Source of the DNA: Flavobacteriaceae bacterium CG2_30_34_30
GTDB lineage: Bacteria > Bacteroidota > Bacteroidia > Flavobacteriales > Flavobacteriaceae
Direction of reading: 5' to 3'
DNA length: 37,302 bases
Assembly: GCA_001873105.1 (NCBI GenBank)
Contig: MNYN01000063.1
Span: 1-37,302, forward strand
Position 1 is the stretch's first letter; each line of letters opens with the position of its first letter. The translations under genes and the position numbers were made by a program. The notes under the pieces are model-generated. The model was not told the origin of the DNA and did no database searches. It was given only the letters and a program-made list of their open reading frames with translations. Below, piece by piece: positions 4,652 through 28,051 of this stretch.

Positions 4652-4696
4652 TAAAGGTACTTGTTTTAGAAGCGGTCATCTATGACAAAAATCAAT
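4652..4696 (-). promoter_or_regulatory. TGA-N6-TCA site plus -7 box, cbpA operon
   Basis: On the plus strand TGACAAAAATCA lies at 4683-4694. On the minus strand a -7-like box TACCTTTA lies at 4652-4659, one base off TAnnTTTG. The centre-to-centre distance is 33 bp, the same as at five other promoters here. The start of cbpA is about 24 bp beyond the box. I infer a class II activator site centred near -41. Confidence 0.7.
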
Positions 4697-4727
4697 AATT
4701 AGGAAAATTTGAAAATAAAATTCGGGT

Positions 4728-5111
4728 TTAAAGTCCGCGTGCTTCAAAAATATTCAAATACAAATGTGATGCCATTTTACGGGCATTGCTTTTGGCGCGG
4801 TTGGCGAGTTCGCCTGCAAAATGTTCGTCTATGGTTTCTAACCAAAGGTTAATCCATTCGCCAAAATGTTCCATTTGTATGCCGTGGTGAAAATTTTTAT
4901 CCACCCGGTTATGTGTTACCACAGGATTGCCTTTAAATTTGGCTTTAAAAAAAAGGTTGCTTTCCCAAAAATCGGTTAGTTTTTCTAAATGCGCATCCCA
5001 GTCGGTAATGGTGTCGTTAAAAAAATGTCCAATCCCTTCACTTTTGCGTACTTTGGCGTAAAAAGAAGAAACCAATAAAAAGACGTCCTCTCTATTTTTA
5101 AGGTCTTGCAT
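4728..5111 (-). CDS. Group III truncated haemoglobin
   Basis: A 127-residue truncated globin of the group III (trHbP) type. The proximal haem ligand is His82 in GIQMEHFGEWINLW, followed by the Trp residues of helix G (86, 90). Tyr18 in SSFYAKV suits the distal B10 position. FWESNLFF at 48-55 is typical of the group. Such globins bind O2 or NO and are linked to microaerobic respiration and nitrosative stress, as Ctb is in Campylobacter. It is the third gene of an operon whose promoter carries the TGA-N6-TCA palindrome shared with the cbb3 oxidase operon. The start ATG is 11 bp after the upstream stop. Confidence 0.92.
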   Translation of the reverse strand: MQDLKNREDVFLLVSSFYAKVRKSEGIGHFFNDTITDWDAHLEKLTDFWESNLFFKAKFKGNPVVTHNRVDKNFHHGIQMEHFGEWINLWLETIDEHFAGELANRAKSNARKMASHLYLNIFEARGL

Positions 5112-5122
5112 GAAAAGTTTTT

Positions 5123-5569
5123 TTATTTAAAATAGGTAGTGTACTGCATAAGGTGGTTTTCTAATTTTGTAAACCCTTTCTTTGCTTCTTGAATATCTGA
5201 AGCACCTAAGCTATTAAAATATTCCTTCATTGGCATCAAATAATTATGTAATTGGTCGTGGGCTTCTCCGGTCATCGTACATTTAGCTACAAGGGTAGCA
5301 AACTCATTTTCCAGCTGAGTTTTTAAGTTTTTATAACCCCTTATTTCTTCTTTTTCGGTAAAAGCCTTCATTGCATCTTGCATAGCAATTATGCCTTGTG
5401 TGGTTTCCATATTTGCCTCCCAAGGTTGGTTATTGTGTAATTGTATTCCCATAGATTCCGATGCTTTGTGGGTTTCATGGTTGGTCATAGTATGGGTTTC
5501 TTTTTTTGAATTTTTACAGGAAAAAACAAGCAGTATAGCAAAAAGAAAACCAAATTTTAATAGTTTCAT
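5123..5569 (-). CDS. Small helical lipoprotein
   Basis: A 148-residue lipoprotein of unknown function. The signal peptide ends in the lipobox FSC with Cys18, so it is probably anchored in the periplasm or outer membrane. A short His/Thr/Met-rich linker follows (ETHTMTNHETHKASESMG). The mature part is helical, with MTGEAHDQLHNYLMPMKEYF near residues 98-117. His and Met clusters could bind metal, and the pattern loosely resembles the DUF3347-type helical domain found with copper and haem systems. It lies between a small membrane protein and a truncated haemoglobin, so a role in haem, copper or NO handling is an inference only. Confidence 0.75.
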   Translation of the reverse strand: MKLLKFGFLFAILLVFSCKNSKKETHTMTNHETHKASESMGIQLHNNQPWEANMETTQGIIAMQDAMKAFTEKEEIRGYKNLKTQLENEFATLVAKCTMTGEAHDQLHNYLMPMKEYFNSLGASDIQEAKKGFTKLENHLMQYTTYFK

Positions 5570-5578
5570 TGGTTTGAA

Positions 5579-5872
5579 TTATATAAAAATTAAAAGTAAA
5601 TGATACACAATGGCAAATATAGAAGCAAGAACGCTGATGAGTAGGGAATTAAACACAAATTTAGGTTTCATTTGTGCTAAAACGGCGGCATTATACCACA
5701 TGGCTACAGCTACGATAATAAATAATTGTATCATTTCAAAAAACCCGGTACCGCTCATTAAAATAAGCATTGCGGCGATAGAACCTAAACAGCTAGAAGC
5801 AATGATACCTAAAGCGGCGTTAGCATAATACAATTCTTTAAAATCGGAAAGAGTAGATTGGTAAAGTTTCAT
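5579..5872 (-). CDS. Small integral membrane protein, 97 residues
   Basis: First gene of the three-gene haemoglobin operon. An upstream ATG at 5893 would add seven residues, but it lies too close to the inferred promoter box (5896-5903), so the ATG at 5870-5872 (MKLYQSTLSDFKELYY) is preferred. Three hydrophobic segments are visible, about residues 15-35, 38-60 and 70-95. There are no redox motifs and only one Cys. I do not recognise the family. Its context (lipoprotein, truncated haemoglobin and a TGA-N6-TCA promoter) suggests an inner-membrane role in low-oxygen physiology. Confidence 0.75.
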   Translation of the reverse strand: MKLYQSTLSDFKELYYANAALGIIASSCLGSIAAMLILMSGTGFFEMIQLFIIVAVAMWYNAAVLAQMKPKFVFNSLLISVLASIFAIVYHLLLIFI

Positions 5873-5895
5873 AATTATAATTTTTGGTTTCAAGG

Positions 5896-5940
5896 TAAAA
5901 TTAGATAACTTCCCTTTTTTAAAATATGACCTAAATCATA
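5896..5940 (-). promoter_or_regulatory. TGA-N6-TCA site plus -7 box, haemoglobin operon
   Basis: The palindrome TATGACCTAAATCATA occupies 5925-5940 (core TGA/TCA 5927-5938). A minus-strand -7-like box TAATTTTA lies at 5896-5903, centre-to-centre 33 bp. The site lies just past the end of the Crp/Fnr gene and about 60 bp before the first gene of the operon. Confidence 0.7.
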
Positions 5941-5956
5941 AACTTATTTGGTGTAT

Positions 5957-6553
5957 TTAACGAAATAGTTTTCGGCTTTTTATCTTTAATTCTCCCTTTT
6001 TTTCTAGCGATTTTGTGGCTCTAATGACAGTTTCTACACGCAATCCGGTAAGGTCAGCTATTTGTTGTCTGGTTAAATCGAGTTCAAAAGAAAAAGGTTC
6101 TTTTAGATTGTGCACGTGGTCTTTCAGATAATCTAATATTCTAAGAATACGATGTTCGGGTTCTTGGCTTGATAATTCAGAAGCCATTATGGCTTTGTAA
6201 TACAATCGTTTGGCAAGTGCTGCAGTAATTTTTAAATGTTCTTCAGGATGTTCTTTAAGAAGCTCCAAAAAACGATCTTTATTTAGTCGAAGGATCTCGC
6301 AATCGGTTAATGCTTCGGCATTTGCAGGATATTTTACCTCAGCAAACAAAGGTGGCTCGCCAAAACTCTGTCCTTTAAGGAAAATACCTTGGATAAATTC
6401 TTTACCATCGTCATTAAAATTATTCATCTTTACTTCGCCTTTAGCAATTTGATAATACGAAATAGCCTGTTGCTCTTCATTAAATATTTGCTCTCCTTTG
6501 GGGTAAAACAACTTTTCAGCTCCAAAGAGGTAAAGTAAATGTTCTTGAATCAT
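5957..6553 (-). CDS. Crp/Fnr-family transcription regulator
   Basis: A 198-residue regulator with a cyclic-nucleotide-binding-like beta-barrel (about 10-100), a dimerisation helix (about 103-130) and a winged helix-turn-helix (about 155-198). The recognition helix LRVETVIRATKSL has Glu174 and Arg178, spaced as the residues that read TGA half-sites in Crp and Fnr. The phosphate-binding cassette is FGEPPLF without the Arg needed for cAMP. The only cysteine is Cys85, so there is no FNR-type iron-sulfur site. The signal is therefore unknown. It is preceded by thioredoxin with 5 bp between them, suggesting co-transcription and possibly redox control. A strong candidate to bind the palindromes described here. 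Confidence 0.9.
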   Translation of the reverse strand: MIQEHLLYLFGAEKLFYPKGEQIFNEEQQAISYYQIAKGEVKMNNFNDDGKEFIQGIFLKGQSFGEPPLFAEVKYPANAEALTDCEILRLNKDRFLELLKEHPEEHLKITAALAKRLYYKAIMASELSSQEPEHRILRILDYLKDHVHNLKEPFSFELDLTRQQIADLTGLRVETVIRATKSLEKKGELKIKSRKLFR

Positions 6554-6558
6554 TTCAT

Positions 6559-6858
6559 TTAATTAAAAGATTGGATAATTTGCAGTAGCTCGGCCTTTTG
6601 TATAACGCCAGATTGGCGCCAAAGTTGTTTTCCGTTTTTAAATAAAATAAGTGTAGGCACTCCTCGCACTTGATATTCAGAAGCAAGTGGCTGGTTTTTA
6701 TCTACATCCATTTTTACAATTTTTATAGCTTCTCCTAGCTCTGCTTTTACTTCGCTTAAAATAGGTGCAAGCACTTTGCACGGTCCGCACCAAGTAGCAA
6801 AAAAATCGACCAATACCGGCTTGCTATCATTAATAATATCCTTAAAATTGCTTTTCAT
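6559..6858 (-). CDS. Thioredoxin
   Basis: A 99-residue thioredoxin with the active site WCGPC (Cys24, Cys27) and the cis-proline loop RGVPTL (Pro68). It has the length of classic cytosolic thioredoxins and no signal peptide, so it should reduce cytoplasmic disulfides. It is first of a two-gene operon with the Crp/Fnr regulator. A minus-strand -7 box TATCTTTG at 6933-6940 would give a leader of roughly 70 nt. Pairing with a regulator that has a single Cys raises the possibility of a redox link, which the sequence alone cannot show. Confidence 0.93.
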   Translation of the reverse strand: MKSNFKDIINDSKPVLVDFFATWCGPCKVLAPILSEVKAELGEAIKIVKMDVDKNQPLASEYQVRGVPTLILFKNGKQLWRQSGVIQKAELLQIIQSFN

Positions 6859-6932
6859 TTTTTTATAAGTTTCAAATTGCCATAAAAATACATTTCCTTA
6901 TCTATTACTCCTAGACAAGTAACGCTTCCCTA

Positions 6933-6940
6933 CAAAGATA
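6933..6940 (-). promoter_or_regulatory. -7 box of the thioredoxin-crp operon
   Basis: The minus strand reads TATCTTTG, an exact match to the Bacteroidota -7 consensus TAnnTTTG. It lies 75 bp before the thioredoxin start. No TGA-N6-TCA palindrome precedes it, so this operon appears not to share the class II control. Confidence 0.55.
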
Positions 6941-6989
6941 ACACACAAAAAATTAATAAAACTGTACAAAACTTAAATACCTAAAGAGC

Positions 6990-6997
6990 TATCTTTG
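6990..6997 (+). promoter_or_regulatory. -7 box just before the RluA-like gene
   Basis: TATCTTTG is followed after four bases by the ATG at 7002. A transcription start about seven bases past the box would make the mRNA leaderless or nearly so. The same arrangement occurs at 21818-21830. Confidence 0.5.
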
Positions 6998-7001
6998 CTG
7001 C

Positions 7002-8672
7002 ATGCCAACAAATCCTTTTCAACCCTTTAAAATAGATGTTTCAGCTATACCTTTACCTGAAAAATTTACGTTTCCATTTTACTACCAGCCACACAAACTA
7101 AGTGCAATTGCTTCAGAAGCTTTGCAACAATATCTAAAAACCCAATCCGATTTTGAACACAATTTTGGGTTACAAAAAAACCAAAACGGATTAGTTATAG
7201 GCAAAATGTTCGGCGTTTTAGTGTGTCAAGACAAGACCGGTCAACTGGGATATTTGTGGGCTTTTTCAGGCAAGTTGGCAGAAACCAATCACCACAAATA
7301 TTTTGTGCCTCCTGTTTTTGATATGTTAGAGCACAATAGCTTCTACAAAAAAGAAGAAAATATACTCAATGCGATAACATTAAATTTAGAAGTCCTAGAG
7401 CAATCAGAAACTTTAAAAAATGCTACTAAAAACGTTCAAAAAGTTCAGATAGATGCCGAAAAGGATATTCAACGCCATAAAGAAACTATAAAAACCCAAA
7501 AAGCGATTCGCGATGCAATAAGAAGTGCTGCACAAAACACCGTTACCTTTGATGCCTACAAAAGTCTTCAAAAAGGGCTGAGTGAGGAGAGCAAAAAAGA
7601 AAGTATTCTTTTTAAAAAAATGACCATATACTGGAATTATCAAAAGGGAAATGCTGCTGCAGAACTTCAAAAAATTAGATCTGAAATACAGGTTTTAAAA
7701 GAACTTCGAAAACAAAAATCAGCTGCGCTACAACAGCAACTTTTTGATAAATATTCTTTTTTAAACCTCTTTGGAATTCAAAAAAGTATAGGTGAAATTT
7801 TTAAAAACAATCCTCCAGCCGGAGCAGGCGAATGTGCAGCTCCTAAACTGTTGCAATATGCATTTACACACCAATTAAAACCTATTGCAATGGCAGAGTT
7901 TTGGTGGGGTCAATCGCCAAATTCTGAAATTAGAAAACACAAACATTTTTATCCTGCCTGCAAAAGTAAATGCGAACCCATTTTAATGGATCATATGTTG
8001 GATGGTTTGGAGGTAGATGACAATCCTTTTCTAGAAAATCCTTCGGAAGTTATGCAATTGGATATTGTGTATGAAGACGATATCCTTTTACTTATCAATA
8101 AACCACCGGAATTTTTATCGGTACCCGGTAAAATTATTACCGATTCGGTGCTTGAGCGCCTTAAACAAATGTATCCTGATGCCACGGGGCCTTTACTTGT
8201 GCATCGGTTAGACATGTCCACCTCTGGTTTGTTGCTTGTGGCAAAAAATAAAGAAACCTATGTGCACCTGCAAAAACAGTTTATGAAACGAACAATTAAA
8301 AAACGATATGTGGCGCTACTTGACGGAATTGTCAAGCAAAAAGAAGGAATTATTAATTTACCGCTTCGAGTAGATTTAGAAGACCGACCAAGACAATTAG
8401 TTTGTTATGAATACGGTAAACCGGCACAAACCAAATGGGAAGTAATTGCCATTAAAAATAAACAAACACGAGTATATTTTTATCCTATCACCGGACGCAC
8501 ACACCAGTTGCGAGTGCACGCCTCACACGAATTAGGACTAAAAATTCCGATATTAGGCGATGATTTGTATGGCAAAAAAGCAAACCGACTACACCTACAT
8601 GCAGAACGTTTAACATTCATACATCCTACCACCAGAGAAGAAATAACCATTTCTGTAGATGCAGCATTTTGA
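7002..8672 (+). CDS. RluA-family pseudouridine synthase with long N-terminal extension
   Basis: A 556-residue protein. The C-terminal part (about residues 345-556) is an RluA-type RNA pseudouridine synthase: LLVHRLDMSTSGLLLVAK holds the catalytic Asp404, and GRTHQLRVH is the conserved later motif. The first 340 residues are not the usual S4 domain. They comprise a beta-rich start, a charged coiled-coil stretch (about 130-250, rich in Lys, Glu and Gln), and a Cys/His segment around 275-330 (GAGECAAPKLLQ, then HKHFYPACKSKCEP) that could bind zinc. Such long RluA homologues occur in Bacteroidota and some Gammaproteobacteria. The substrate RNA position is unknown. Confidence 0.9.
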   Translation: MPTNPFQPFKIDVSAIPLPEKFTFPFYYQPHKLSAIASEALQQYLKTQSDFEHNFGLQKNQNGLVIGKMFGVLVCQDKTGQLGYLWAFSGKLAETNHHKYFVPPVFDMLEHNSFYKKEENILNAITLNLEVLEQSETLKNATKNVQKVQIDAEKDIQRHKETIKTQKAIRDAIRSAAQNTVTFDAYKSLQKGLSEESKKESILFKKMTIYWNYQKGNAAAELQKIRSEIQVLKELRKQKSAALQQQLFDKYSFLNLFGIQKSIGEIFKNNPPAGAGECAAPKLLQYAFTHQLKPIAMAEFWWGQSPNSEIRKHKHFYPACKSKCEPILMDHMLDGLEVDDNPFLENPSEVMQLDIVYEDDILLLINKPPEFLSVPGKIITDSVLERLKQMYPDATGPLLVHRLDMSTSGLLLVAKNKETYVHLQKQFMKRTIKKRYVALLDGIVKQKEGIINLPLRVDLEDRPRQLVCYEYGKPAQTKWEVIAIKNKQTRVYFYPITGRTHQLRVHASHELGLKIPILGDDLYGKKANRLHLHAERLTFIHPTTREEITISVDAAF

Positions 8673-8728
8673 TTTTTTCAAATCGTAAGGTGGCGCAAGC
8701 ATAATCCGTAATTTGTACAAATTTCTTC

Positions 8729-10000: not shown

Positions 10001-10038
10001 ACGTGTTTTTTATTTGAATGGAAATATATTGAATTTTA

Positions 10039-10743: not shown

Positions 10744-10751
10744 GGGCGTAA

Positions 10752-11198: not shown

Positions 11199-11225
11199 TG
11201 GTGTTTCTTTTATTATAGTAAACTA

Positions 11226-11816: not shown

Positions 11817-11840
11817 TATTAAAATGCTTCTTTTACTTCT

Positions 11841-13256: not shown

Positions 13257-13279
13257 TTTGGGGTCTAGTACTAATTGCT

Positions 13280-14442: not shown

Positions 14443-14446
14443 ATTG

Positions 14447-16651
14447 CTATTGGTTTTCAGTATTAGTAGATTCTTCTATATTTTTCACCTTGATATCGGT
14501 GCCAAGGCGTTGTAAATAAGCGATTATAGCTACTATTTCTCTATTTTTCATTTCAATGAAATCCATGCCATTTTCATTAGCATAGGCTTTATCGGCCTCA
14601 TAGTTTCTTACAAAATCCGGGTCGGAATATAAGTTTTCTTCTATTTTTGTACCTTGCTCGAGCATCCACTGCTGTGCTCCTGCAATTTCTTCATCGGTAT
14701 AAGGAACACCAAGTTTTACCATCACTCGCATTTTAGCTTCGGTATTTGATTTGTCCAATTCTGAATTTATCAGCCATTTATAGTTAGGCATTATAGATCC
14801 CGGCGAAGTACTTCTTGGGTCGTAAAAGTGATTTAAATGCCAATTGTCAGAAAACTTACCGCCTACACGCAATAAATCAGGGCCTGTTCGTTTGCTTCCC
14901 CATAAAAAAGGATGATCATATACAAACTCTCCGGCTTTGGAATATTCACCATAGCGCTCTACTTCACTTCTAAAAGGGCGAACCATTTGTGAGTGACAAC
15001 CTACGCAACCTTCTCTTATATAAAGGTCACGGCCTTCTAATTCTAAAGGTGTGTATGGATGCACACTGGAAATAGTAGGAATATTTGATTTAATCACTAT
15101 AGTAGGTACGATTTGCACTATACCACCGATAAGGATGGCAACCGTAGCAAAAATAGTTAACTGAACCGGTCTGCGTTCCAACCAAGAATGGTAACCTTCA
15201 CCTGAAACACGTTTTTTGGTTACGTGCTCAAGTGGAGCAGCTTCGGCTAATTCATCGGTTACCTCACTACCCGATCTTATGGTTTTGATTAAATTATAAA
15301 GCATTACAAAAGCACCGGTAATGTATAAAGTGCCTCCTATGGCGCGCATCCAGTACATCGGCATGATTTGAGTAACGGTTTCTAAAAAGTTACCATAAAC
15401 CAACGTTCCATCCGGGTTAAATTGTTTCCACATGGAAGCCTGTAAAAACCCTGCAACATACATAGGTAGGGTATAAAGAATAATCCCTAAGGTTCCTATC
15501 CAGAAATGGAAATTAGCCAATCCAATAGAATATAATTTTGTTTTAAATAATCTTGGCAGTAACCAATAAATCATACCGAAAGTAAGAAATCCGTTCCAGG
15601 CCAATGCACCCACATGCACGTGTGCTACAATCCAATCCGTAAAATGCGCAATGGCATTCACATTTTTAAGTGAAAGCATTGGTCCTTCAAAAGTTGCCAT
15701 TCCATAACCGGTAATGGCTACTACCATAAACTTCAAGGTTGGGTCTGTGCGCACTTTATCCCAAGCTCCACGCAGAGTTAATAATCCATTAATCATACCA
15801 CCCCATGAAGGCATTAACAACATAACCGAAAATGCGACACCTAAGTTTTGTGCCCAATCTGGCAAGGCAGAATACAACAAATGGTGAGGTCCTGCCCAAA
15901 TGTAAATGAATATTAAGGACCAGAAATGCACTATTGATAACCGGTAGGAATATATGGGTCGGTTAGCAATTTTAGGAACAAAATAATACATCAACCCTAA
16001 GAAAGGTGTTGTTAAGAAAAAAGCTACCGCATTATGCCCATACCACCATTGCACCAATGCATCCTGCACTCCTGCATAAACCGAATAACTTTTTAAAGCA
16101 CTTACCGGAAGTGCTAAACTGTTAAAAATATGAAGTACTGCTACAGTTACAAAAGTAGCAAGGTAAAACCATATGGCTACATACAAATGTCGTTGTCTTC
16201 TTCGTAAAATTGTACCTATCATATTAATACCAAATACAACCCAAATTAATGCAATAGCAACATCAATAGGCCATTCCAGCTCTGCGTATTCTTTTGAAGA
16301 ACTAAATCCTAAAGGAAGTGTTATCGCCGCAGCTACAATAATAAATTGCCAGCCCCAAAAGTTTATAGTGGTTAATGCATCGCTAAACATTCGTGCTTTT
16401 AATAACCGCTGCAACGAATAATAAATACCCGCAAAAATAGCATTCCCAACAAAGGCAAAAATAACAGCATTGGTATGTAAGGGTCTTAACCTTCCGTAGC
16501 TAAGCCACGAAATACCGTCTGTCATGTTTGGAAATAAATATAAGGTTGCAAGAAAAAGCCCTACGGTCATCCCGATAAGACCCCAGAAAATGGTTGCGTA
16601 AATAAACTTCTTAACGATTTTATTATCGTAATAAAATTGCTGTACTTCCAT
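14447..16651 (-). CDS. ccoNO: Fused cbb3 oxidase subunits CcoN and CcoO
   Basis: A 734-residue fusion. Residues 1-460 are CcoN, the haem-copper subunit, with ligand candidates His59 (RPLHTNAV), His206 (WWYGHNAVAF), His256-His257 (AGPHHLLY), and His344 and His346 (IVAHVHVGALAW). A linker at about 461-495 leads to CcoO, whose membrane anchor lies at about 498-520 and haem c site CVGCH at 549-553, followed by MVRPFRSEVERYG. In Proteobacteria these are two genes; the fusion is usual in Bacteroidota. It catalyses O2 reduction with high affinity and pumps protons. It starts 2 bp after ccoS. Confidence 0.96.
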   Translation of the reverse strand: MEVQQFYYDNKIVKKFIYATIFWGLIGMTVGLFLATLYLFPNMTDGISWLSYGRLRPLHTNAVIFAFVGNAIFAGIYYSLQRLLKARMFSDALTTINFWGWQFIIVAAAITLPLGFSSSKEYAELEWPIDVAIALIWVVFGINMIGTILRRRQRHLYVAIWFYLATFVTVAVLHIFNSLALPVSALKSYSVYAGVQDALVQWWYGHNAVAFFLTTPFLGLMYYFVPKIANRPIYSYRLSIVHFWSLIFIYIWAGPHHLLYSALPDWAQNLGVAFSVMLLMPSWGGMINGLLTLRGAWDKVRTDPTLKFMVVAITGYGMATFEGPMLSLKNVNAIAHFTDWIVAHVHVGALAWNGFLTFGMIYWLLPRLFKTKLYSIGLANFHFWIGTLGIILYTLPMYVAGFLQASMWKQFNPDGTLVYGNFLETVTQIMPMYWMRAIGGTLYITGAFVMLYNLIKTIRSGSEVTDELAEAAPLEHVTKKRVSGEGYHSWLERRPVQLTIFATVAILIGGIVQIVPTIVIKSNIPTISSVHPYTPLELEGRDLYIREGCVGCHSQMVRPFRSEVERYGEYSKAGEFVYDHPFLWGSKRTGPDLLRVGGKFSDNWHLNHFYDPRSTSPGSIMPNYKWLINSELDKSNTEAKMRVMVKLGVPYTDEEIAGAQQWMLEQGTKIEENLYSDPDFVRNYEADKAYANENGMDFIEMKNREIVAIIAYLQRLGTDIKVKNIEESTNTENQ

Positions 16652-16653
16652 AA

Positions 16654-16848: not shown

Positions 16849-16865
16849 GTGGGATTTATTTATTT

Positions 16866-16910
16866 CAAAAGTATTGTACGCTTAAAAAGCAAAATATGAT
16901 TTTAGTCATA
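16866..16910 (-). promoter_or_regulatory. TGA-N6-TCA site plus -7 box, cco operon
   Basis: The palindrome TATGATTTTAGTCATA spans 16895-16910 (core 16897-16908). A minus-strand box TACTTTTG at 16866-16873 is a perfect TAnnTTTG match, with centres 33 bp apart. The usp-usp promoter at 27105-27149 has the same box sequence and spacing. A second minus-strand TACCTTTG at 16942-16949 has no palindrome and may be a basal promoter. Confidence 0.8.
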
Positions 16911-17137
16911 AATTGTGTCTTTATTGCAAATTTATCTTAGCCAAAGGTATTAAAAAATGGAAAACACACCTTTTAATAGAAATCAAATTTTTCTTTTTTT
17001 ATCAACCTAAATGCAACTAATAAGTTTTATCGGACACTAGTGTAAAAAAAATAAATAATATGAATATTTTCGCATACAAATAATTAGTATTATTACCCTT
17101 AAAGATTTTCCTTTCCTTGTTTATAAAAAATGGTAAG

Positions 17138-17181
17138 CTGACTTTGATCAGTTTTTTAATTACCTATAAATAATACCTTGC
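17138..17181 (+). promoter_or_regulatory. TGA-N6-TCA site plus -7-like box, acyl-CoA synthetase gene
   Basis: CTGACTTTGATCAG at 17138-17151 has the TGA/TCA core at 17139-17150. Downstream TACCTTGC at 17174-17181 is a degraded TAnnTTTG, the weakest of the six, yet again centred 33 bp away. Together with the cco site it makes the 354-bp spacer 16849-17202 a divergent control region. The middle of that spacer (about 16960-17130) holds nothing else I can interpret. Confidence 0.6.
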
Positions 17182-17202
17182 TCGGTCAAAATAGGAACTA
17201 AT

Positions 17203-19257: not shown

Positions 19258-19259
19258 GT

Positions 19260-21659
19260 TTACTTCAAATTTCTGCCCATAATATTTGTAGCAACCGTAG
19301 TAAAAACTACCACACTTATAGAGCTTAGAGGCATAATAATGGCTGCCACTACTGGAGCCAATTGTCCCGTAACTGCAAAATAAAGTCCAACTATATTATA
19401 TAAAAAAGAAATGACCATACTCGTTTTAATGATACCGATAGCTTTTTTAGTCATGTTTAAATAGCTAGGTAATTCTGCCAACTTTGACGCATCTAAAATA
19501 GCATCACAAGCTGGAGAAAACACATTTACATTTTCAGAAATAGCAATACCCACATTACTTTGTTTTAAAGCACCCGCATCGTTAAGTCCATCACCAACCA
19601 TTAAAATGGTATGACCATAATTTTGCAAGTCTTGAATATAAGCTAGCTTATCTTCCGGTTTTTGATGAAATAATAAGGTTGTTTTTTTTGGTAGTTTTTG
19701 ATGTAAATATGCTTTTTCTCCTTCATTATCTCCGGAAAGTATGGCCAGATTGTACTGCTTTTCCAGCTCTTTAAAAACATTTTCGACACCCTTTCTATAG
19801 TTGTTTTTAAAAATATATTTACCTTTGTAACAGTTATTTATGCTTATATGTATAGAAGTTCGTTTTTCTTCACTTTTAGATTGTACTCCTTTATTGTCCA
19901 CATAATTTGCAGAACCAATTTTAATTTGGTCACCATTCCATTTGGCTAGGATGCCTTTGCCAGAATATTCCTTAAATACATCTGGAGTAATACTGTCTTG
20001 TTCCTTCAAAAGTGTATATAACATCCTGCTAAGAGGATGATTAGAAGCACGTAAGGCATTTTTCAACAACCCTTCTTCCTTTTGGGTTAAAGGAATACCG
20101 TCATAGTAAATACTGTTTTTAGTAGTCGCTGTAATCGTCCCTGTTTTATCAAAAATAACCGTGTCAATTTTTGACAGTTGCTCAATAACCGTTGCATTTT
20201 TTAAATAGAATTTTAGTTTACCAAAAATTCGAAGCGTGTTTCCAAGAGTAAAAGGCGCTGACATAGCAAGTGCACAAGGGCAGGCAATAATCAACACAGC
20301 TGTAAATACTTGCATTGCCAATGCTTGATTTACAAAAAACCAATACGTTGTAGAAACAAGAGCAATCGTTAAAATAACGATAGTAAAATATTTACTAATG
20401 GTGTTGGTAAGTGTGGTAAACGCCAACTCTTTATCTTTACTAAAGGCATCATTACTCCATAATTGGGTTAAATAACTTTGGGAAACCGATTTTAAAGTCT
20501 CTACTTCAATGGCACCGGATATTTGTTTTCCTCCTGCAAAAACTTTATCACCGGATTGTTTTTGGATAGGATCAGACTCTCCGGTAACAAAACTGTAATC
20601 TATAAGTGCATTGCCTTTTATTAAAATGCAATCTACAGGAATAAGTTCCTGATTACGAATAAGAAGTCGATCACCCTTTTTTACATCATAAACTTGTACA
20701 GACTCTTCTTTTCTTCCGGAAGTGATTCGTGTAACGGCAATGGGGAAATAGGATTTAAAATCGCGTTCAAAAGAAAGAAAGTTATAGGTTTTTTGTTGAA
20801 AGTACTTTCCTAATAAAAGAAAAAACACCAAACCTGTTAGGCTATCAAAAAATCCGGCACCATGGTCAAAAATTATTTCATAAGTGCTTCTAGCAAAAAG
20901 CACAATAATTCCAACTGCAATAGGCACATCAATATTTAAAACTTTGGCGCGTAAACCCTTAAAAGCAGAAATAAAATATCCCGAAGCAGAATAGAAAAAA
21001 ACAGGCAGGGCAAAGGAAAACATCAACCAACGAAAGAGTGGTTTGTATTGTTCTAGCCAAAACTCATTCATTTCAAAGTATTCAGGAAAGGAGAGAAACA
21101 TGACATTGCCAAATGCAAAACCTGCAATGCCCAATTTATAAATCAAACTTCGGTCAATAGGTTTTTTTGCAGACGCATAATCATCTAAACTTATGTAGGG
21201 CTCATAGCCTATACTGCCTAGCAAAATCACAACTTCTTTAAGCGAAATTTCCTTCGCATTAAAATGCAAACGAACTGTTTTTTTAGGAAAAACTACTTGC
21301 GATGCTTTGATGGATTTATTAAGTTTATTCAGGTTTTCCAATATCCATATACAAGAGCTGCAATGGATATGTGGAATGTACAGGGTAATGATTTGAGTAG
21401 TACCGTCGTTAAATTCTAAAAGCTTTTCGGCAATGGAAGCATTGTCTAAAAAATCGTATTTACCCTCCATTTCTTTTGGAATAGCTCCGGGAGCATTTTG
21501 CAAGTCGTAGTAACAAGTCAAATCGCTTGATGAAAAAATTTCATAAACCGTTTTGCAACCATTGCAGCAAAACGATTTACCATCGGCTACAATGGCATCT
21601 GTTTTACAAGAATCGCCACAGTGATAACAGGTGGTTTTTATATCAGATATTGCCGCCAT
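19260..21659 (-). CDS. ccoI: Copper-transporting P1B-type ATPase CcoI/FixI
   Basis: A 799-residue heavy-metal P-type ATPase. The N-terminal 45 residues hold a Cys-rich segment (CYHCGDSC, CCNGC), a CcoI trait, then an HMA domain with HCSSC at 99-103. Eight membrane helices are expected, with the ion-binding CPC motif (IIACPCALAMSAP, near residue 460). DKTGTIT (near 500) contains the phosphorylated Asp, and TGES and GDGLND are present. In cbb3 systems this pump delivers Cu to the periplasm for the CuB site. It is split from the cco operon by the convergent acyl-CoA synthetase gene. Promoter box TATCTTTG at 21729-21736. Confidence 0.94.
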   Translation of the reverse strand: MAAISDIKTTCYHCGDSCKTDAIVADGKSFCCNGCKTVYEIFSSSDLTCYYDLQNAPGAIPKEMEGKYDFLDNASIAEKLLEFNDGTTQIITLYIPHIHCSSCIWILENLNKLNKSIKASQVVFPKKTVRLHFNAKEISLKEVVILLGSIGYEPYISLDDYASAKKPIDRSLIYKLGIAGFAFGNVMFLSFPEYFEMNEFWLEQYKPLFRWLMFSFALPVFFYSASGYFISAFKGLRAKVLNIDVPIAVGIIVLFARSTYEIIFDHGAGFFDSLTGLVFFLLLGKYFQQKTYNFLSFERDFKSYFPIAVTRITSGRKEESVQVYDVKKGDRLLIRNQELIPVDCILIKGNALIDYSFVTGESDPIQKQSGDKVFAGGKQISGAIEVETLKSVSQSYLTQLWSNDAFSKDKELAFTTLTNTISKYFTIVILTIALVSTTYWFFVNQALAMQVFTAVLIIACPCALAMSAPFTLGNTLRIFGKLKFYLKNATVIEQLSKIDTVIFDKTGTITATTKNSIYYDGIPLTQKEEGLLKNALRASNHPLSRMLYTLLKEQDSITPDVFKEYSGKGILAKWNGDQIKIGSANYVDNKGVQSKSEEKRTSIHISINNCYKGKYIFKNNYRKGVENVFKELEKQYNLAILSGDNEGEKAYLHQKLPKKTTLLFHQKPEDKLAYIQDLQNYGHTILMVGDGLNDAGALKQSNVGIAISENVNVFSPACDAILDASKLAELPSYLNMTKKAIGIIKTSMVISFLYNIVGLYFAVTGQLAPVVAAIIMPLSSISVVVFTTVATNIMGRNLK

Positions 21660-21728
21660 GAGTCTGCTCTTTCATAAAAATTAATATCCCTATATTTCTT
21701 AAAGGAATCGTTTTTTGTTTAAGAAACG

Positions 21729-21736
21729 CAAAGATA
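21729..21736 (-). promoter_or_regulatory. -7 box of ccoI
   Basis: The minus strand reads TATCTTTG, giving a leader of about 60-70 nt to the ccoI start at 21659. No TGA-N6-TCA palindrome lies 33 bp upstream, so ccoI seems to be controlled apart from the oxidase operon. Confidence 0.5.
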
Positions 21737-21817
21737 TGGATTATTAAAACAAGGTTAATTATTCGTAGAACTCGAAATAAGAAATAAAAAACAGGTGTAG
21801 AAGAAATGAGATTTAGT

Positions 21818-21825
21818 TATCTTTG
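21818..21825 (+). promoter_or_regulatory. -7 box just before the histidine kinase ATG
   Basis: TATCTTTG ends four bases before the ATG at 21830, the same spacing as at 6990-7002. It overlaps the start of the longer reading frame from 21806, which argues that 21830 is the true start and that the mRNA is nearly leaderless. Confidence 0.5.
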
Positions 21826-21829
21826 GGAC

Positions 21830-23059: not shown

Positions 23060-23074
23060 AAATAGCATTTACCC

Positions 23075-24124
23075 ATGAAGAAAGTATTATTGATTGAAGA
23101 CGATACCGCAGTAAGAGAAAATACCGCAGAAATCATTGAACTTTCTGGCTATAAAGTGGTTACTGCTCCCAATGGAAAAATTGGAGTTATGATAGCCAAA
23201 AGGGAATTGCCCGATATCATAATTTGTGATATAATGATGCCTGAAATGGATGGTTATGCGGTCTTAAAATCACTAGCATCAGAGCCTTCTACTCAATTTA
23301 TTCCTTTTATTTTTCTGTCAGCAAAAACGGAATATAAAGACATAAGAATTGGAATGGACCTAGGAGCCGATGACTACCTTACCAAACCATTTAACGAAGA
23401 AGATCTCTTAAATGCCATAGAAAGTCGATTAGCTAAAACATCTATTCTTCACGATCAAAGAATGAATAAACCAATTGTGGATGAAAAAGATGGAGATCTT
23501 CATACCCTAAACGATTTAAAAAACTTTGTAGATGACCACGGCAAGGAATTTCATTTTAAAAAAGGGGAAATTATTTTTCAACAAGGGAAAAACTCTAACT
23601 ACATTTTTCTTCTAAAAAAGGGCATTGTTAAAACTCATAAAATTGATGAAAACGGTAAAGAATTAACCACAAGTTTACTTAAAGAAGACGATTTATTTGG
23701 GTATGCTTCCTTATTACAAAATATTACATACCAAGAATCAGCCACCGCTGTAGAAAATTGTGACCTTGCAGGTATTATAAAAGAAGAATTGAAAAATGTT
23801 TTACAAAAAAATCACAAAGTTACCCTTGAACTCTTTGAACTCTTATCGGACAACCTTTCTGAAATGAAAGAGCAACTATTGCAAATGGCATATGGTTCAG
23901 TAAGAAAAAAAACAGCCGCAACCATTCTACAATTTGCCGAAAAAATGAATCCAAAGAAGCAAGACCAAATAAAAATATCCAGAAATGACCTTGCAAGTGT
24001 AGCCGGTATTGCAACCGAAAGTTTAATAAGAACCCTATCTCATTTTAACAAAGAGGGATTAATAGAAATTAATGGAAGAAATATTAAGATTTTAGATCTC
24101 GCCTCTTTAAAACAAATTCAATAA
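23075..24124 (+). CDS. Response regulator: REC fused to Crp/Fnr-type DNA-binding module
   Basis: A 349-residue fusion. A CheY-like receiver (1-120) has the acidic pair Asp9-Asp10, phospho-acceptor Asp52 (ICDIMMP), Ser82 and Lys104. A cyclic-nucleotide-binding-like barrel follows (about 155-245, GEIIFQQG, then DLFGY without a cAMP-contacting Arg), a dimerisation helix, and a Crp-type winged helix (about 295-345). The recognition helix ATESLIRTLSHF has Glu315 and Arg319, spaced like Crp/Fnr residues that read TGA. Phosphorylation by the upstream kinase thus could control a Crp-like activator. The next gene, usp at 24216, has a TGA-N6-TCA promoter site. It is the second candidate activator of the regulon. 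Confidence 0.93.
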   Translation: MKKVLLIEDDTAVRENTAEIIELSGYKVVTAPNGKIGVMIAKRELPDIIICDIMMPEMDGYAVLKSLASEPSTQFIPFIFLSAKTEYKDIRIGMDLGADDYLTKPFNEEDLLNAIESRLAKTSILHDQRMNKPIVDEKDGDLHTLNDLKNFVDDHGKEFHFKKGEIIFQQGKNSNYIFLLKKGIVKTHKIDENGKELTTSLLKEDDLFGYASLLQNITYQESATAVENCDLAGIIKEELKNVLQKNHKVTLELFELLSDNLSEMKEQLLQMAYGSVRKKTAATILQFAEKMNPKKQDQIKISRNDLASVAGIATESLIRTLSHFNKEGLIEINGRNIKILDLASLKQIQ

Positions 24125-24147
24125 TTAATTTCATCCATTTTTATTAT

Positions 24148-24192
24148 TATGATTTTTGTCATATTTTTAAGAATCCCATACCAATATATTTG
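24148..24192 (+). promoter_or_regulatory. TGA-N6-TCA site plus -7 box, usp at 24216
   Basis: The palindrome TATGATTTTTGTCATA lies at 24148-24163 (core 24150-24161). A perfect -7 box TATATTTG lies at 24185-24192, centres 33 bp apart. No TTG-type -33 element is visible, which is consistent with activator dependence. Confidence 0.8.
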
Positions 24193-24215
24193 TTTCTTAA
24201 TAAGAAGTATTGGTA

Positions 24216-25055
24216 ATGATAAATATTTTAGTTCCTACAGATTTTTCTGAAAACTCATGGAATGCTATTACGTTTGCGCTTGCCATGTATGCAAGCGCTA
24301 GGTGTAATTTTTATCTTGTACATGTTATTAAAGAAAACTCACCAACCCAAGAAAATTTTACAGAGGGAACTACAAAAAATAGTATAGAAAACCACTCGCC
24401 TACAGAAACAAGAAAAAAATTAATCGATTTAGCACAGAAAATTGAACAATCACCGCGTATTAAATACCACCGTTTTTTTATAGTAACCGCACAAGGAAAT
24501 TTTGTAGAAGCCATAAGAAAACAAGTCCTTGAAAAAAAAATTGACCTAATTGTAATGGGTACAAAAGGAGCTTCAGAACTTCATAATAACGGTGTAGGCA
24601 ATAATACTTCCGATGTAATTACTAAAGTAAAGTGCAATGCATTTGTGGTGCCAGATAAAGCAAGTTATGTTGGGATAAAAGAAATTGCATTTCCTACAGA
24701 TTATAATTTGTTTTATCCCGCCTCTATTTTAAGAACTATATCTTCATTTGCAAATAACTTAAACGCCAAAATAAGAATTGTTCATTTATCAAAAACAAAA
24801 CAAAAGTTAATTGCAGAACAACTACAAAATAAGGAACTACTTCAAGATTATTTTCAAGGGGAACCCCATAGTTTTCACAAATTGACTAATCAGAATATCG
24901 AAATAGGCATCCAAAATTTTATAGCAAAAAATAATATAGATTTAATTGCTATGGCAGCAAAAAATATTCATTTTTATCAACAATTACTCTTTAAATCTTC
25001 AGAAGACAACGGCAGTTACCACTCCAGAATTCCATTTTTAGTATTACACGAATAA
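24216..25055 (+). CDS. Tandem-domain universal stress protein
   Basis: A 279-residue protein with two Usp domains. The N-terminal one starts INILVPTDFSENSWNA and has a loop GTKGASELHNNGVGNNT (about 107-123), close to the ATP-binding G-x2-G-x9-G-x-[ST]. The second domain begins around EIAFPTDYNLF (about 153) and has no glycine loop, so it is degenerate. A TTG at 24210 opens the frame two codons earlier, but the ATG at 24216 gives the normal Usp start and is preferred. It follows the REC-Crp regulator by 91 bp and has its own palindrome-type promoter. Confidence 0.9.
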   Translation: MINILVPTDFSENSWNAITFALAMYASARCNFYLVHVIKENSPTQENFTEGTTKNSIENHSPTETRKKLIDLAQKIEQSPRIKYHRFFIVTAQGNFVEAIRKQVLEKKIDLIVMGTKGASELHNNGVGNNTSDVITKVKCNAFVVPDKASYVGIKEIAFPTDYNLFYPASILRTISSFANNLNAKIRIVHLSKTKQKLIAEQLQNKELLQDYFQGEPHSFHKLTNQNIEIGIQNFIAKNNIDLIAMAAKNIHFYQQLLFKSSEDNGSYHSRIPFLVLHE

Positions 25056-25157
25056 AGTATTTTTTATATTCAAATATTTTTATTTCTAAAAAACTGTTTT
25101 TTAAGTAGGGTAAAAAACATTTGACTTGTTTTACTTTCATAAACAATAAAAATTAAA

Positions 25158-25901
25158 ATGAAAATTATGAAAAAACCAGTCTTATTTATCCTGGCAATGT
25201 TTGTTACTACATTAATGATATTAACGTCTTGTAGTAAAGATAATCCAGCACCTAATTCAGAAACCGCAAGTACTTCTATAGGTGCAAAAGCAACTTTCAA
25301 TTTAGGAAGAGCCGTTAATGATGTGACTATAACCAAATTTATGGTTAATGTTAAAAATATTGAATTAGAGTTTGACGATGATGTAAACGAAGGAAGTGGT
25401 GGCGACGATAACAATGGAGGTTTTGGTCCATTTTATAATGACATTGAGCTTGATGGCCCATTTGAATTAGAATTTACTACTAATGGCATTGTAATTCCTT
25501 TTGTCAATGTAGATCTTCCTGTTGCACAATATGAAGAATTAGAATTTGAGATTGCCGAAAGCAATAACCAAAGTAGTGTTCTTTTTCAAAAATCCATTTT
25601 AATTGAAGGAACCGTAAACACCATTCCTTTCCTATTTTGGCACAATTTTGAAGAAGGAGTAGAAGTAGATTTTGAAGATGCAAATACTGATATTATCATT
25701 GAAAACAATGGTAACAGTATCTTGATAAATTTTGATCTAAACTTCTTGTTTAATACGTCCATTATTGACTTATCCACTGCTACTGATGGCAATGCCGATG
25801 GTGTTATAGAAATTAGCCCTAACGACAATGATGGTAACAATGCATTAGCAAACACTATCAAAAATATCATCAAACAAAGTATCGATTTACTAGACGATTA
25901 A
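25158..25901 (+). CDS. Asp/Asn-rich lipoprotein
   Basis: A 247-residue lipoprotein. The signal peptide ends in LTSC with Cys25. The mature part is beta-rich and very acidic, with a low-complexity Gly/Asp/Asn loop at about 75-90 (EGSGGDDNNGGFG) and a C-terminal stretch with Ca-binding-like spacing, DGNADGVIEISPNDNDGN (about 206-223). The N-terminal mature segment (NLGRAVNDVTITKFMVNVKNIELEF) resembles DUF4382-type surface lipoproteins, without certainty. It is probably exposed at the outer membrane or periplasm. A second ATG three codons in is an alternative start. It is monocistronic with an intrinsic terminator. Confidence 0.78.
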   Translation: MKIMKKPVLFILAMFVTTLMILTSCSKDNPAPNSETASTSIGAKATFNLGRAVNDVTITKFMVNVKNIELEFDDDVNEGSGGDDNNGGFGPFYNDIELDGPFELEFTTNGIVIPFVNVDLPVAQYEELEFEIAESNNQSSVLFQKSILIEGTVNTIPFLFWHNFEEGVEVDFEDANTDIIIENNGNSILINFDLNFLFNTSIIDLSTATDGNADGVIEISPNDNDGNNALANTIKNIIKQSIDLLDD

Positions 25902-25924
25902 CCCCCTTTAATCTGTAAATCCCC

Positions 25925-25958
25925 AAAGCCTGAAGATTTATTCTTCAGGCTTTTTTTA
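25925..25958 (+). terminator. Intrinsic terminator after the Asp-rich lipoprotein gene
   Basis: A perfect 12-bp stem, AAAGCCTGAAGA at 25925-25936 with TCTTCAGGCTTT at 25942-25953, encloses a 5-base loop and is followed by a run of T. It also faces the end of the opposing gene at 25984, though its A-run on that side is short. Confidence 0.9.
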
Positions 25959-25983
25959 TAGGCATAAAAGATTATTTGTAATA

Positions 25984-26850
25984 TTAATTTTCCACCTTGT
26001 TAAACTGCATTAAAACCCGAGACGGGTTTTTTAATTTAAGGGTGGCATTTGACACAGTGTAGGATGTAACTTGCTGTAAAGCCTCTAAAAACTGATCTTC
26101 TATATTGGCCTGATTACAAATTTTCTTCGGACTTTTAAGATTAGTAAACCTTAACAACTCCCATTCAGAAAATAAACTTCCATGTATTTTATTACAACCC
26201 GCAAAGCCGAAAAAAGTATTTGCTTGGGTTTGAATTTCTATATGTGGAAAATTAATTTCAAATAGAGAATCCTCTAATTTGTTCTCTCCAATTTTTTCTA
26301 AAGCCCAATAGCCTTGTAAGTTGGAATCAATTGTATAAGAGCCACAACCTAGAAACGATAAAAAATCTTTATCGGTATTTCTTTTTAAATTCACTTCCAC
26401 CTTATAGGCTGAAATAGCTCCAGACATAGTATTTATACATTCTTCTTCTGAAATAGAAATAAGCATTTCCATCTGCTCTGTTTTTAGCTTATAGGTTTTA
26501 ATGGTAGTATCGTCTGCTCTTATAGGATACCTAAAAGGAGCCGAAAACTGGTTTGTTATGGAATCTAAAAAAGTAAAATTAATGTCCTTCTCTGTTATTT
26601 CCAAACCCCAAAAAGGCTCATTTCCTGCGGCAGTAAAATACACCCTATTTACGCTAGCTTCTAAAAAAGTATCTGAGCTATCCGCTGCAACACTATTTTC
26701 GTCTATTTCTTCATCAATAGGATTCTCCTCAAATTCTTTTTTTTCACCTGAAGATGTTTGCCTATATTTCTCTGTTTCTGTTTTATTATTTATGTTCATA
26801 CAACCTGAACAAATAATAAAAAATAATAAATAAAAAACACCTATTTTCAT
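25984..26850 (-). CDS. META/HslJ-like lipoprotein with COG3650-type domain
   Basis: A 288-residue lipoprotein, signal peptide with lipobox CSGC (Cys17). An acidic linker (about 20-60) precedes a COG3650-like domain beginning FTAAGNEPFWGLEI (about 67-80). A META domain follows (about 175-285, QGYWALEKIG and FFGFAGCNKIHGSL), related to heat-shock protein HslJ. The motif A-G-N-E-P-F-W and the later G-C-N-x-[IM]-x-G are clear. The function of this pair is not established beyond cell-envelope stress associations. The preferred start is the ATG at 26848-26850, because it opens directly on the signal peptide; the frame extends ten codons upstream. Monocistronic. Confidence 0.85.
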   Translation of the reverse strand: MKIGVFYLLFFIICSGCMNINNKTETEKYRQTSSGEKKEFEENPIDEEIDENSVAADSSDTFLEASVNRVYFTAAGNEPFWGLEITEKDINFTFLDSITNQFSAPFRYPIRADDTTIKTYKLKTEQMEMLISISEEECINTMSGAISAYKVEVNLKRNTDKDFLSFLGCGSYTIDSNLQGYWALEKIGENKLEDSLFEINFPHIEIQTQANTFFGFAGCNKIHGSLFSEWELLRFTNLKSPKKICNQANIEDQFLEALQQVTSYTVSNATLKLKNPSRVLMQFNKVEN

Positions 26851-26884
26851 ATCGCTACGTGAGTTCCTTAGAGAGTACAAATAT

Positions 26885-26892
26885 CAAAAATA
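26885..26892 (-). promoter_or_regulatory. -7 box of the META lipoprotein gene
   Basis: The minus strand reads TATTTTTG, a TAnnTTTG match 35 bp before the start at 26850. In the rest of the 331-bp divergent spacer 26851-27181 I see a plus-strand TAATTTTG at 27050-27057 without a nearby start and the palindrome promoter at 27105-27149. The remainder is AT-rich. Confidence 0.45.
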
Positions 26893-27104
26893 ATTAGTTT
26901 AATTATCCATATTTTATTAAAAATTAAAACGTATCAATTAAATTAATAAAATAGTAGTGTTAAAATTATATAGATATTGCTTTGAGTACTTAGGTAGATT
27001 TTAAAAAGAAAGAAAACTAAATAATTTCTAATCCTAAAAAGGCTTTATCTAATTTTGTGTTCTAAAATTTAAAGTCTCCAAAATCCTTAAGCAAGTATTT
27101 TTTT

Positions 27105-27149
27105 AATGACATTGGTCATTTTAAAAACAAATATAAAGTTTTACTTTTG
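27105..27149 (+). promoter_or_regulatory. TGA-N6-TCA site plus -7 box, usp-usp operon
   Basis: AATGACATTGGTCATT at 27105-27120 is a palindrome with 6-bp perfect arms around a 4-bp centre. The -7 box TACTTTTG at 27142-27149 is a perfect match, centres 33 bp apart, the same box and spacing as the cco operon promoter. Confidence 0.8.
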
Positions 27150-28030: not shown

Positions 28031-28051
28031 AAACGATCCAAATATATTTAA

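What the first reader, a model, noticed from the sequence alone, without database searches (positions are those of the whole stretch)
4652..27149. Six TGA-N6-TCA palindromes share an exact 33-bp spacing to -7 boxes: an oxygen or redox regulon
Sites: TGACAAAAATCA (4683), TGACCTAAATCA (5927), TGATTTTAGTCA (16897), TGACTTTGATCA (17139), TGATTTTTGTCA (24150), TGACATTGGTCA (27107). In every case the centre is 33 bp from the centre of a TAnnTTTG-like box on the proper strand: TACCTTTA, TAATTTTA, TACTTTTG, TACCTTGC, TATATTTG, TACTTTTG. Three boxes are perfect, two differ in the last base, one is degraded. I searched upstream of other units and found -7 boxes without the palindrome. Identical geometry at six of six sites is unlikely by chance and predicts class II activation at about -41. 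The targets (cbb3 oxidase, truncated haemoglobin, acyl-CoA synthetase, CbpA chaperone and Usp proteins) form a coherent low-oxygen programme.
Basis: partly seen in the sequence, partly recalled or inferred. Interest (0 to 1): 0.88.

Follow-up and report, generated by a model that had tools for sequence, protein, structure and literature searches.

The report
Low-oxygen promoters handed to new regulator
Six predicted gene promoters in this flavobacterium, and 11 more by a strict rule elsewhere in its genome, carry the same palindrome at one exact distance from the start box; relatives show the same layout, and control likely passed from the oxygen sensor FNR to a kinase-driven Crp protein predicted to bind there.

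Summary
All six palindromes sit 23 bases from their box. In the window's own genome, 16 of 40 strict palindrome-box pairs fall at gap 23 out of 31 gaps allowed, 11 of them outside the window. In 79 related loci the strict count is 96 at gap 23 and at most 3 at any other. With the box at -12 to -5, as mapped in Flavobacterium psychrophilum (PMC9723704), the palindrome centre lies at -41.5, the class II position. Further targets are hemN, nirK, a nosZ run and a NiFe hydrogenase. In its family, 53 of 63 genomes have an FNR-like protein. The window's draft genome has none; a PAS kinase and a receiver-Crp fusion lie beside ccoI instead. Nine of the ten FNR-less genomes carry this fusion and keep 7-22 sites; the tenth lacks both and has none. 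One base of the half-site differs with FNR presence. Likely reading: an FNR-type regulon now driven by a two-component Crp fusion. Binding, start sites and the oxygen signal are untested, and a second Crp in the window is not excluded.

The parts
4652..4694 (-). Site 1: palindrome 4683-4694 (TGATTTTTGTCA on the minus strand), 23-base gap, box 4652-4659 (TACCTTTA); upstream of a DnaJ/CbpA-like gene (3744-4628) and a MerR_2/CbpM-like gene
   Evidence: in G204 a site also follows the haemoglobin gene
5896..5938 (-). Site 2: palindrome 5927-5938, box 5896-5903 (TAATTTTA); upstream of a small membrane protein, a lipoprotein-like gene and a group III truncated haemoglobin
   Evidence: haemoglobin by PDB 2ig3, E 2.8e-10, no Pfam or NCBIfam match
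16866..16908 (-). Site 3: palindrome 16897-16908, box 16866-16873 (TACTTTTG); upstream of a 65-aa CcoS-like ORF (label recalled), then ccoNO, ccoP, ccoG, a cytochrome b561 gene and a FixH-like gene
   Evidence: same site in 25 of the 26 genomes with a ccoNO orthologue, of 30 searched
17139..17181 (+). Site 4: palindrome 17139-17150, box 17174-17181 (TACCTTGC, fits TAnnTTGY not TAnnTTTR); upstream of an ADP-forming acyl-CoA synthetase
   Evidence: palindrome kept but box not kept in L216
24150..24192 (+). Site 5: palindrome 24150-24161, box 24185-24192 (TATATTTG); between REC-Crp and a universal stress protein gene
   Evidence: a strict site within 400 bases downstream of REC-Crp in 48 of 80 named loci
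27107..27149 (+). Site 6: palindrome 27107-27118, box 27142-27149 (TACTTTTG); upstream of two universal stress protein genes
   Evidence: kept in L216
21806..23059 (+). PAS histidine kinase without an obvious membrane segment (by eye); His74 aligns with the haem-ligating His of FixL; phosphoacceptor motif SHEFKTPL starts at residue 201
23075..24124 (+). REC-Crp: receiver domain (Asp52) fused to a Crp sensor/HTH domain, recognition helix TESLIR; best-supported regulator of the sites
5957..6553 (-). 198-aa single-domain Crp (called wCrp here), helix VETVIR; rival or co-regulator
19260..21659 (-). CcoI-like P-type ATPase; in 7 of 8 fnr-bearing cco regions read, fnr lies divergent directly beside this gene; here the kinase/REC-Crp pair does
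14447..16651 (-). Fused cbb3 oxidase subunits I/II (ccoNO), main respiratory target
24210..25055 (+). Universal stress protein; Usp genes accompany REC-Crp in 80 of 80 named loci
27182..28903 (+). Two universal stress protein genes behind site 6

Best explanation
The six sites share one predicted promoter design, an FNR-type palindrome at one fixed distance from the Bacteroidota -7 box, and they are likely class II activator sites that in this lineage would be bound by the receiver-Crp fusion at 23075-24124, driven by the PAS kinase beside it, in place of a lost FNR. Shown by sequence: the geometry, its conservation across the family, and a low-oxygen gene set. Also shown: none of the six cyclic-nucleotide-domain proteins found in the window's draft genome has an N-terminal CxxC, and the kinase/REC-Crp pair stands beside ccoI, where the relatives read keep fnr. 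Inferred: low oxygen, perhaps through haem in the PAS domain, turns on the kinase; phosphorylated REC-Crp binds the palindrome at -41.5 and touches RNA polymerase to activate cbb3 oxidase, stress proteins, chaperone, truncated haemoglobin, and (elsewhere in the genome) hemN, nirK, nosZ and hydrogenase. Inferred: the handover left a mark, since FNR sites prefer TGAYA in the half-site far from the box, whereas sites in FNR-less genomes and beside REC-Crp mostly do not.
For: Geometry. Family-wide: 701 sites in 63 family genomes against 13 for the reversed pattern (sum of sites, of controls by hand). Position -41.5. Regulator: of 63 family genomes, 10 lack an FNR match better than 1e-40, the other 53 reach 1e-61 or better. 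Nine of the ten carry REC-Crp (E <= 1e-103) and keep 7-22 sites; the tenth, G248, has neither and is the only one of the 63 with 0 sites. In G080 and G143 REC-Crp is the only PF00027 protein found with an ExxIR helix, and they keep 9 and 13 sites. Mean sites per genome: FNR and REC-Crp 23.3 (n=11), REC-Crp alone 11.9 (9), FNR with a more distant REC-Crp 12.3 (10), FNR alone 6.7 (32), neither 0 (1); wCrp makes no difference, 8.4 (20) against 7.7 (22). FNR loss: 9 of 20 genomes with REC-Crp, 1 of 43 without (p 6e-5). Locus: of 8 cco regions read that hold fnr, 7 have it directly beside ccoI; in the eighth (G236) the kinase, REC-Crp and a Usp gene lie between ccoI and fnr; in the window the pair lies beside ccoI, and in G061 and G176 about 1 kb upstream of ccoI, with no fnr in the stretch. 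Half-site base: ccoN 16 of 18 A with FNR, 1 of 7 without; hemN 13 of 14 against 0 of 5.
Against: No binding, expression or start-site data. wCrp also has an ExxIR helix, lies beside site 2, and is present (E <= 1e-40) in all 7 FNR-less genomes with cbb3 oxidase while absent from all 11 genomes with both FNR and REC-Crp, so it may serve some sites. G080 and G143, the clean REC-Crp-only cases, have no cbb3 or hemN orthologue, and G248 has none either, so its lack of sites may reflect lack of targets. G061 and G176 hold an unexamined FNR-like relative that scores better (E about 1e-37) than their REC-Crp would. Only 9 of 80 named REC-Crp loci are linked to cco genes; the constant neighbours are stress proteins. 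In the window's genome 7 of 16 strict sites still have A at position 5. Outside the family, FNR-like hits (E about 1e-45 to 1e-50) do not always go with sites: for example G096, G125, G144, G148, G185, G261 and G295 have 0. Genomes are related, so p values overstate independence.
Confidence: 0.6

Rival explanations
1. The 198-aa Crp (wCrp, 5957-6553) took over from FNR at the respiratory genes, and REC-Crp serves only the stress-protein promoters.
For: ExxIR helix. Beside site 2, and within 1.5 kb of a truncated haemoglobin gene in 16 of 20 loci read. Present in 7 of 7 FNR-less genomes with cbb3 oxidase, absent in 11 of 11 genomes with FNR and REC-Crp. Its neighbouring palindromes in nine genus-g2 genomes have T at position 5 in both halves, and so do the ccoN, hemN, cytochrome c, fasciclin/nosZ and nirK sites of the window's genome.
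Against: No effect on site number (8.4 against 7.7). Those nine palindromes stand 24, not 23, bases from the box, although beside wCrp in G000, G204, G036, G200, G188 and G224 the gap is 23. The one genome seen with wCrp but neither FNR nor full-length REC-Crp (G021) has 0 sites. wCrp is only 18-31% identical to the REC-Crp and FNR proteins it was aligned with.
Confidence: 0.23
2. An ordinary FNR, missing from this 91%-complete assembly, binds the sites; REC-Crp is incidental.
For: The genome is a 91% complete draft; FNR is the rule in the family (53 of 63).
Against: The same-genus genome G204 (99% complete) also lacks it. The ccoI-adjacent place of fnr is assembled here and holds the kinase/REC-Crp. 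The FNR-type A at position 5 is lost at ccoN and hemN.
Confidence: 0.08
3. The palindrome is a -33 promoter element or a repressor operator rather than an activator site.
For: It abuts a T-rich stretch where a -33 element would lie.
Against: Control palindromes do not show the spacing. A repressor would not need one exact distance (inference). One palindrome serves two divergent promoters at the same distance in the hydrogenase/hyp region. cbb3 oxidase is induced, not repressed, under oxygen limitation in F. psychrophilum (PMC9723704, passage).
Confidence: 0.08

Closest known systems
FNR regulon with class II promoters (E. coli FNR, Anr, FnrL)
   Same: TGA-N6-TCA core, predicted centre at -41.5, targets cbb3, hemN, denitrification, hydrogenase
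   Different: TCA is followed by T, often TA, rather than the A of TTGAT-N4-ATCAA (FNR consensus recalled); promoter box is the Bacteroidota TAnnTTTG; no cysteine-bearing FNR found in this genome
FixLJ-FixK cascade of rhizobia
   Same: The kinase's PAS domain is most similar to FixL haem-PAS among solved structures; a Crp-type protein would act on cbb3 oxidase
   Different: Receiver and Crp domains are one protein, so one transcription step is missing; haem binding untested; FixL distal Arg is Ser94 here
DosSR dormancy regulon of mycobacteria (recalled)
   Same: Two-component system with universal stress proteins as targets, predicted hypoxia signal
   Different: Output domain is Crp/Fnr-type, not LuxR-type; sensor is PAS, not GAF
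DNR/NnrR-type nitric oxide regulators (recalled)
   Same: Crp family, nirK and nosZ targets
   Different: The set here is wider than denitrification; wCrp beside truncated haemoglobin might be the local counterpart

Membership tests
FNR-type class II activator sites | Palindrome with TGA..TCA core in front of genes | tested here: met
FNR-type class II activator sites | Centre about 41.5 bases upstream of the start | tested here: inconclusive
   Follows from the published box position; start sites not mapped in this organism
FNR-type class II activator sites | Low-oxygen target genes | tested here: met
FNR protein family | N-terminal CxxC plus a later Cys for the Fe-S cluster | tested here: not met
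   REC-Crp and wCrp lack it; the relatives' protein L057 has CxxC at 4/7 and Cys106. The Fe-S cluster itself was not tested
FixL haem-PAS kinases | Axial His in the PAS domain | tested here: met
   His74 aligns with the FixL His; kept in all 16 PAS domains that aligned over it at 33% identity or more. In 4 of the 20 loci (G065, G139, G114, G244) no such alignment was found. Many PAS domains without known haem also carry it (recalled)
FixL haem-PAS kinases | Distal Arg | tested here: not met
   Ser94 in the window; Arg in 13 of the 15 other PAS domains aligned there (counted by eye)
FixL haem-PAS kinases | Binds haem and oxygen | not testable with these tools
   needs purified protein
Two-component response regulator | Receiver with phosphoacceptor Asp and partner kinase | tested here: met
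   Asp52; kinase adjacent in 79 of 80 named loci
Bacteroidota primary sigma promoter | TAnnTTTG box | tested here: met
   Of six boxes, 3 exact, 2 ending in A, 1 TAnnTTGY

The most novel reading that the evidence does not exclude
In flavobacteria a whole FNR regulon has been handed, several times over, from an iron-sulphur FNR to a two-component Crp fusion: same promoters, same spacing, with one base of the half-site retuned, and with a living intermediate (G236) that keeps both regulators side by side at the ccoI locus.
Probability: 0.48. Interest if true: 0.8.

Novelty: new variant of a known kind. Interest (0 to 1): 0.66.

Why it matters
It would give flavobacteria a defined oxygen-response code (palindrome, exact spacing, target set); ten literature searches listed no paper that by title or opening of abstract describes one. 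It would also be a clean natural case of a global regulon changing its sensor while keeping its promoters. The single-base difference and the genomes with both regulators make the swap directly testable.

Tried and rejected
The palindrome count alone was rejected as evidence (16 against about 10 expected). Reversed patterns and 12 other palindromes gave no peak at gap 23; the reversed patterns gave 12 matches over the 31 gaps against 40. Genome size as the cause of site number was rejected (Spearman 0.08). wCrp as the main regulator was weakened, not excluded. A general 'REC-Crp replaced fnr in place' story was rejected: only 9 of 80 named loci are linked to cco genes and none has fnr in the stretch held (at most 10 kb each side, some shorter). 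FixL-type haem sensing could not be settled, because the distal Arg is Ser here. The position-5 difference was first noticed by eye in the ccoN list, and the hemN list came from the same call, so hemN is not a fully independent test.

Dropped or partial rows. One search used 93 sites of 8 FNR-only genomes and 37 sites of G000, G204 and G061, keeping only TGAYN4RTCAT with box TAnnTTTR; the 93 sites round REC-Crp genes had box TAnnTTTG only. One search left out one G204 site (corrected: 16 of 38 A) and one mirrored G000 site. Place lists were cut off by the tool; the counts per genome are whole. In one search the typed comparison '13 of 15' was wrong; the count is 11 of 13 (p 0.015). hemN counts leave out 7 of 26 genomes without an exact site. 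Without G061 and G176: ccoN p 0.008, pooled ccoN and hemN p 5e-6, FNR loss p 5e-4; without G061 the genome-wide position-5 test gives p 0.013.
Full report
OBSERVATION. The palindrome itself is common (16 in the window, about 10 expected). The spacing is what stands out. In the window, TGAN6TCA followed by TAnnTTTR is found 5 times at gap 23 and 3 times in total over the 40 other gaps from 5 to 45; 300 random windows drawn from the same dinucleotide frequencies gave 0.03 on average and never more than 1. The sixth site (17139) has TACCTTGC, which is not TAnnTTTR but fits TAnnTTGY, the box of motif SM5 in Flavobacterium psychrophilum (PMC9723704, passages).

GENOME-WIDE. The window is contig 53 of a 2.54-Mb, 91% complete draft. 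TGAN6TCA-N23-TAnnTTTR gives 20 matches, the reversed pattern 1. With the stricter palindrome TGAYN4RTCA and the gap left free from 8 to 38, 16 of 40 matches are at gap 23; outside the window, from which the rule was taken, 11 remain, against 0.8 per other gap. Genes behind sites outside the window include hemN and copper nitrite reductase nirK (both over NCBIfam's cut-off), a fasciclin gene followed by a nosZ fragment (cut by the locus end, below cut-off), a cytochrome c, and a NiFe hydrogenase small subunit (over cut-off) divergent from hypA/hypB (labels by eye), with one palindrome serving both promoters. A few matches (for example L001 and L007) lie in coding sequence or lack a sensible downstream gene and are probably chance.

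ACROSS RELATIVES. In 296 genomes of the order, 165 have at least one TGAYN4RTCAT-N22-TAnnTTTR; in the 63 genomes of the window's family the sum is 701 sites against 13 for the reversed pattern (sums and by hand). Small genomes of other families mostly have none. In 79 loci round REC-Crp genes from named Flavobacteriaceae and related records (1.56 Mb, the closest relative left out), strict palindrome and TAnnTTTG lie 23 bases apart 96 times and at most 3 times at any other gap from 0 to 60; 12 control palindromes, tested at gaps 15 to 31, show no peak at 23. The ccoNO operon has the site in 25 of 26 genomes that carry it, of 30 searched, and hemN in 19 of 26.

POSITION. F. psychrophilum places the TAnnTTTG box at -12 to -5. 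A palindrome starting 35 bases before the box is then at -47 to -36, centre -41.5, the class II position of FNR and CRP (recalled). The same paper reports strong up-regulation of cbb3 oxidase, and of haem synthesis enzymes, under oxygen limitation (passage).

WHICH REGULATOR. The window encodes two Crp-type proteins: a 198-aa one (wCrp) and a receiver-Crp fusion next to a PAS kinase. The PF00027 search found six proteins in the own genome and none has an N-terminal CxxC. In the family, 53 of 63 genomes match the FNR-like protein L057 at 1e-61 or better; the 13 family members that I read are about 225 aa with an N-terminal CxxC and a TATES.IR helix, and solved relatives of L057 include FNR proteins. 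The ten without it are G000, G204, G036, G200, G061, G176, G080, G143, G252 and G248. Nine carry the REC-Crp and keep 7 to 22 sites. G248 carries neither and is the only family genome with no site; it also lacks cbb3 oxidase and hemN orthologues, so lack of targets could explain it. In G080 and G143 the REC-Crp is the only PF00027 protein found with an ExxIR helix; these two also lack cbb3 and hemN orthologues, yet keep 9 and 13 sites. Absence of FNR was checked protein by protein only in G000, G204, G080, G143, G252 and G248; in G061 and G176 an unexamined FNR-like relative scores better (E about 1e-37) than the REC-Crp does. Site numbers roughly add up: 23.3 with both regulators, 11.9 with REC-Crp alone, 6.7 with FNR alone; a more distant REC-Crp type goes with 12.3 beside FNR; wCrp makes no difference. 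FNR-less REC-Crp carriers fall in four places of the REC-Crp gene tree, so FNR was probably lost more than once.

LOCUS. Ten cco or REC-Crp regions and the window were read. Eight hold fnr. In seven of them (G027, G216, G256, G232, G065, G280, G139) it lies divergent directly beside ccoI. In the eighth, G236, the kinase, REC-Crp and a Usp gene lie between ccoI and fnr. In the window the same kinase/REC-Crp/Usp run lies beside ccoI and no fnr follows; in G061 and G176 the pair lies about 1 kb upstream of ccoI-hemN-ccoN, without fnr in the stretch. This linkage is not general: of 80 named loci, 79 have the kinase adjacent and 80 have Usp genes, but only 9 have ccoI or ccoNO and none has fnr within the stretch held. 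The constant partner of REC-Crp is therefore the stress-protein cluster.

CIS MARK. At position 5 of the half-site away from the box, A is found in 16 of 18 ccoN sites with FNR and 1 of 7 without, and in 13 of 14 hemN sites with FNR and 0 of 5 without (pooled p 5e-7). Listed sites overall: 68 of 93 in eight FNR-only genomes, 16 of 38 in three FNR-less genomes, 14 of 93 distinct sites round REC-Crp genes. In genomes with both regulators, sites downstream of REC-Crp have A in 4 of 13 and their ccoN/hemN sites in 11 of 13. In the window's genome 7 of 16 strict sites still have A. These tests ignore relatedness; within genus g3, ccoN has A in 3 of 3 with FNR and 0 of 2 without.

SENSOR. The PAS domain of the kinase matches FixL haem-PAS best among solved structures (E 3e-17), then DosP. 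The FixL axial His aligns with His74, which is kept in all 16 PAS domains that aligned over it; in 4 of 20 loci no such alignment was found. The FixL distal Arg is Ser94 in the window and Arg in 13 of the 15 others. Haem and oxygen sensing are therefore predicted, not shown.

LITERATURE. Ten searches listed no paper that by title or opening of abstract deals with this motif, this spacing or a REC-Crp fusion in flavobacteria. I saw listings, plus passages of PMC9723704 and PMC8510549. The latter assigns Flavobacteriales Crp/Fnr homologues to a MalR-like group by phylogeny (passages), a different proposal from this one.

VERDICT. An FNR-type class II regulon is well supported; the REC-Crp as its present regulator is likely but unproven.

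Noticed in passing
window:5896-6858: wCrp lies near a small membrane protein and a group III truncated haemoglobin gene in many genomes; in nine genus-g2 genomes the palindrome behind wCrp stands 24 bases from the box and has T at position 5 in both halves, a possible second spacing class.
   Followed up: partly
window:17174-17181: The box of site 4, TACCTTGC, fits the SM5 box TAnnTTGY of F. psychrophilum, hinting at an alternative sigma factor at the acyl-CoA synthetase promoter.
   Followed up: partly
L008/L009:1501-1543: One palindrome between hypA/hypB (by eye) and the hydrogenase small subunit serves two divergent promoters, each at gap 23; similar shared palindromes appear in G061, G284 and G012.
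   Followed up: no
window:17203-19257: An ADP-forming acyl-CoA synthetase gene lies between ccoNO and ccoI here and in L216, but not in the ten other regions.
   Followed up: no
L018:1-1500: A palindrome site on the minus strand precedes a small membrane protein followed by an OmpR-type response regulator (by eye), so the regulon may feed a second two-component system.
   Followed up: no
G061 and G176 (places not listed by the tool): Both hold an FNR-like relative at E about 1e-37 that was not examined.
   Followed up: no
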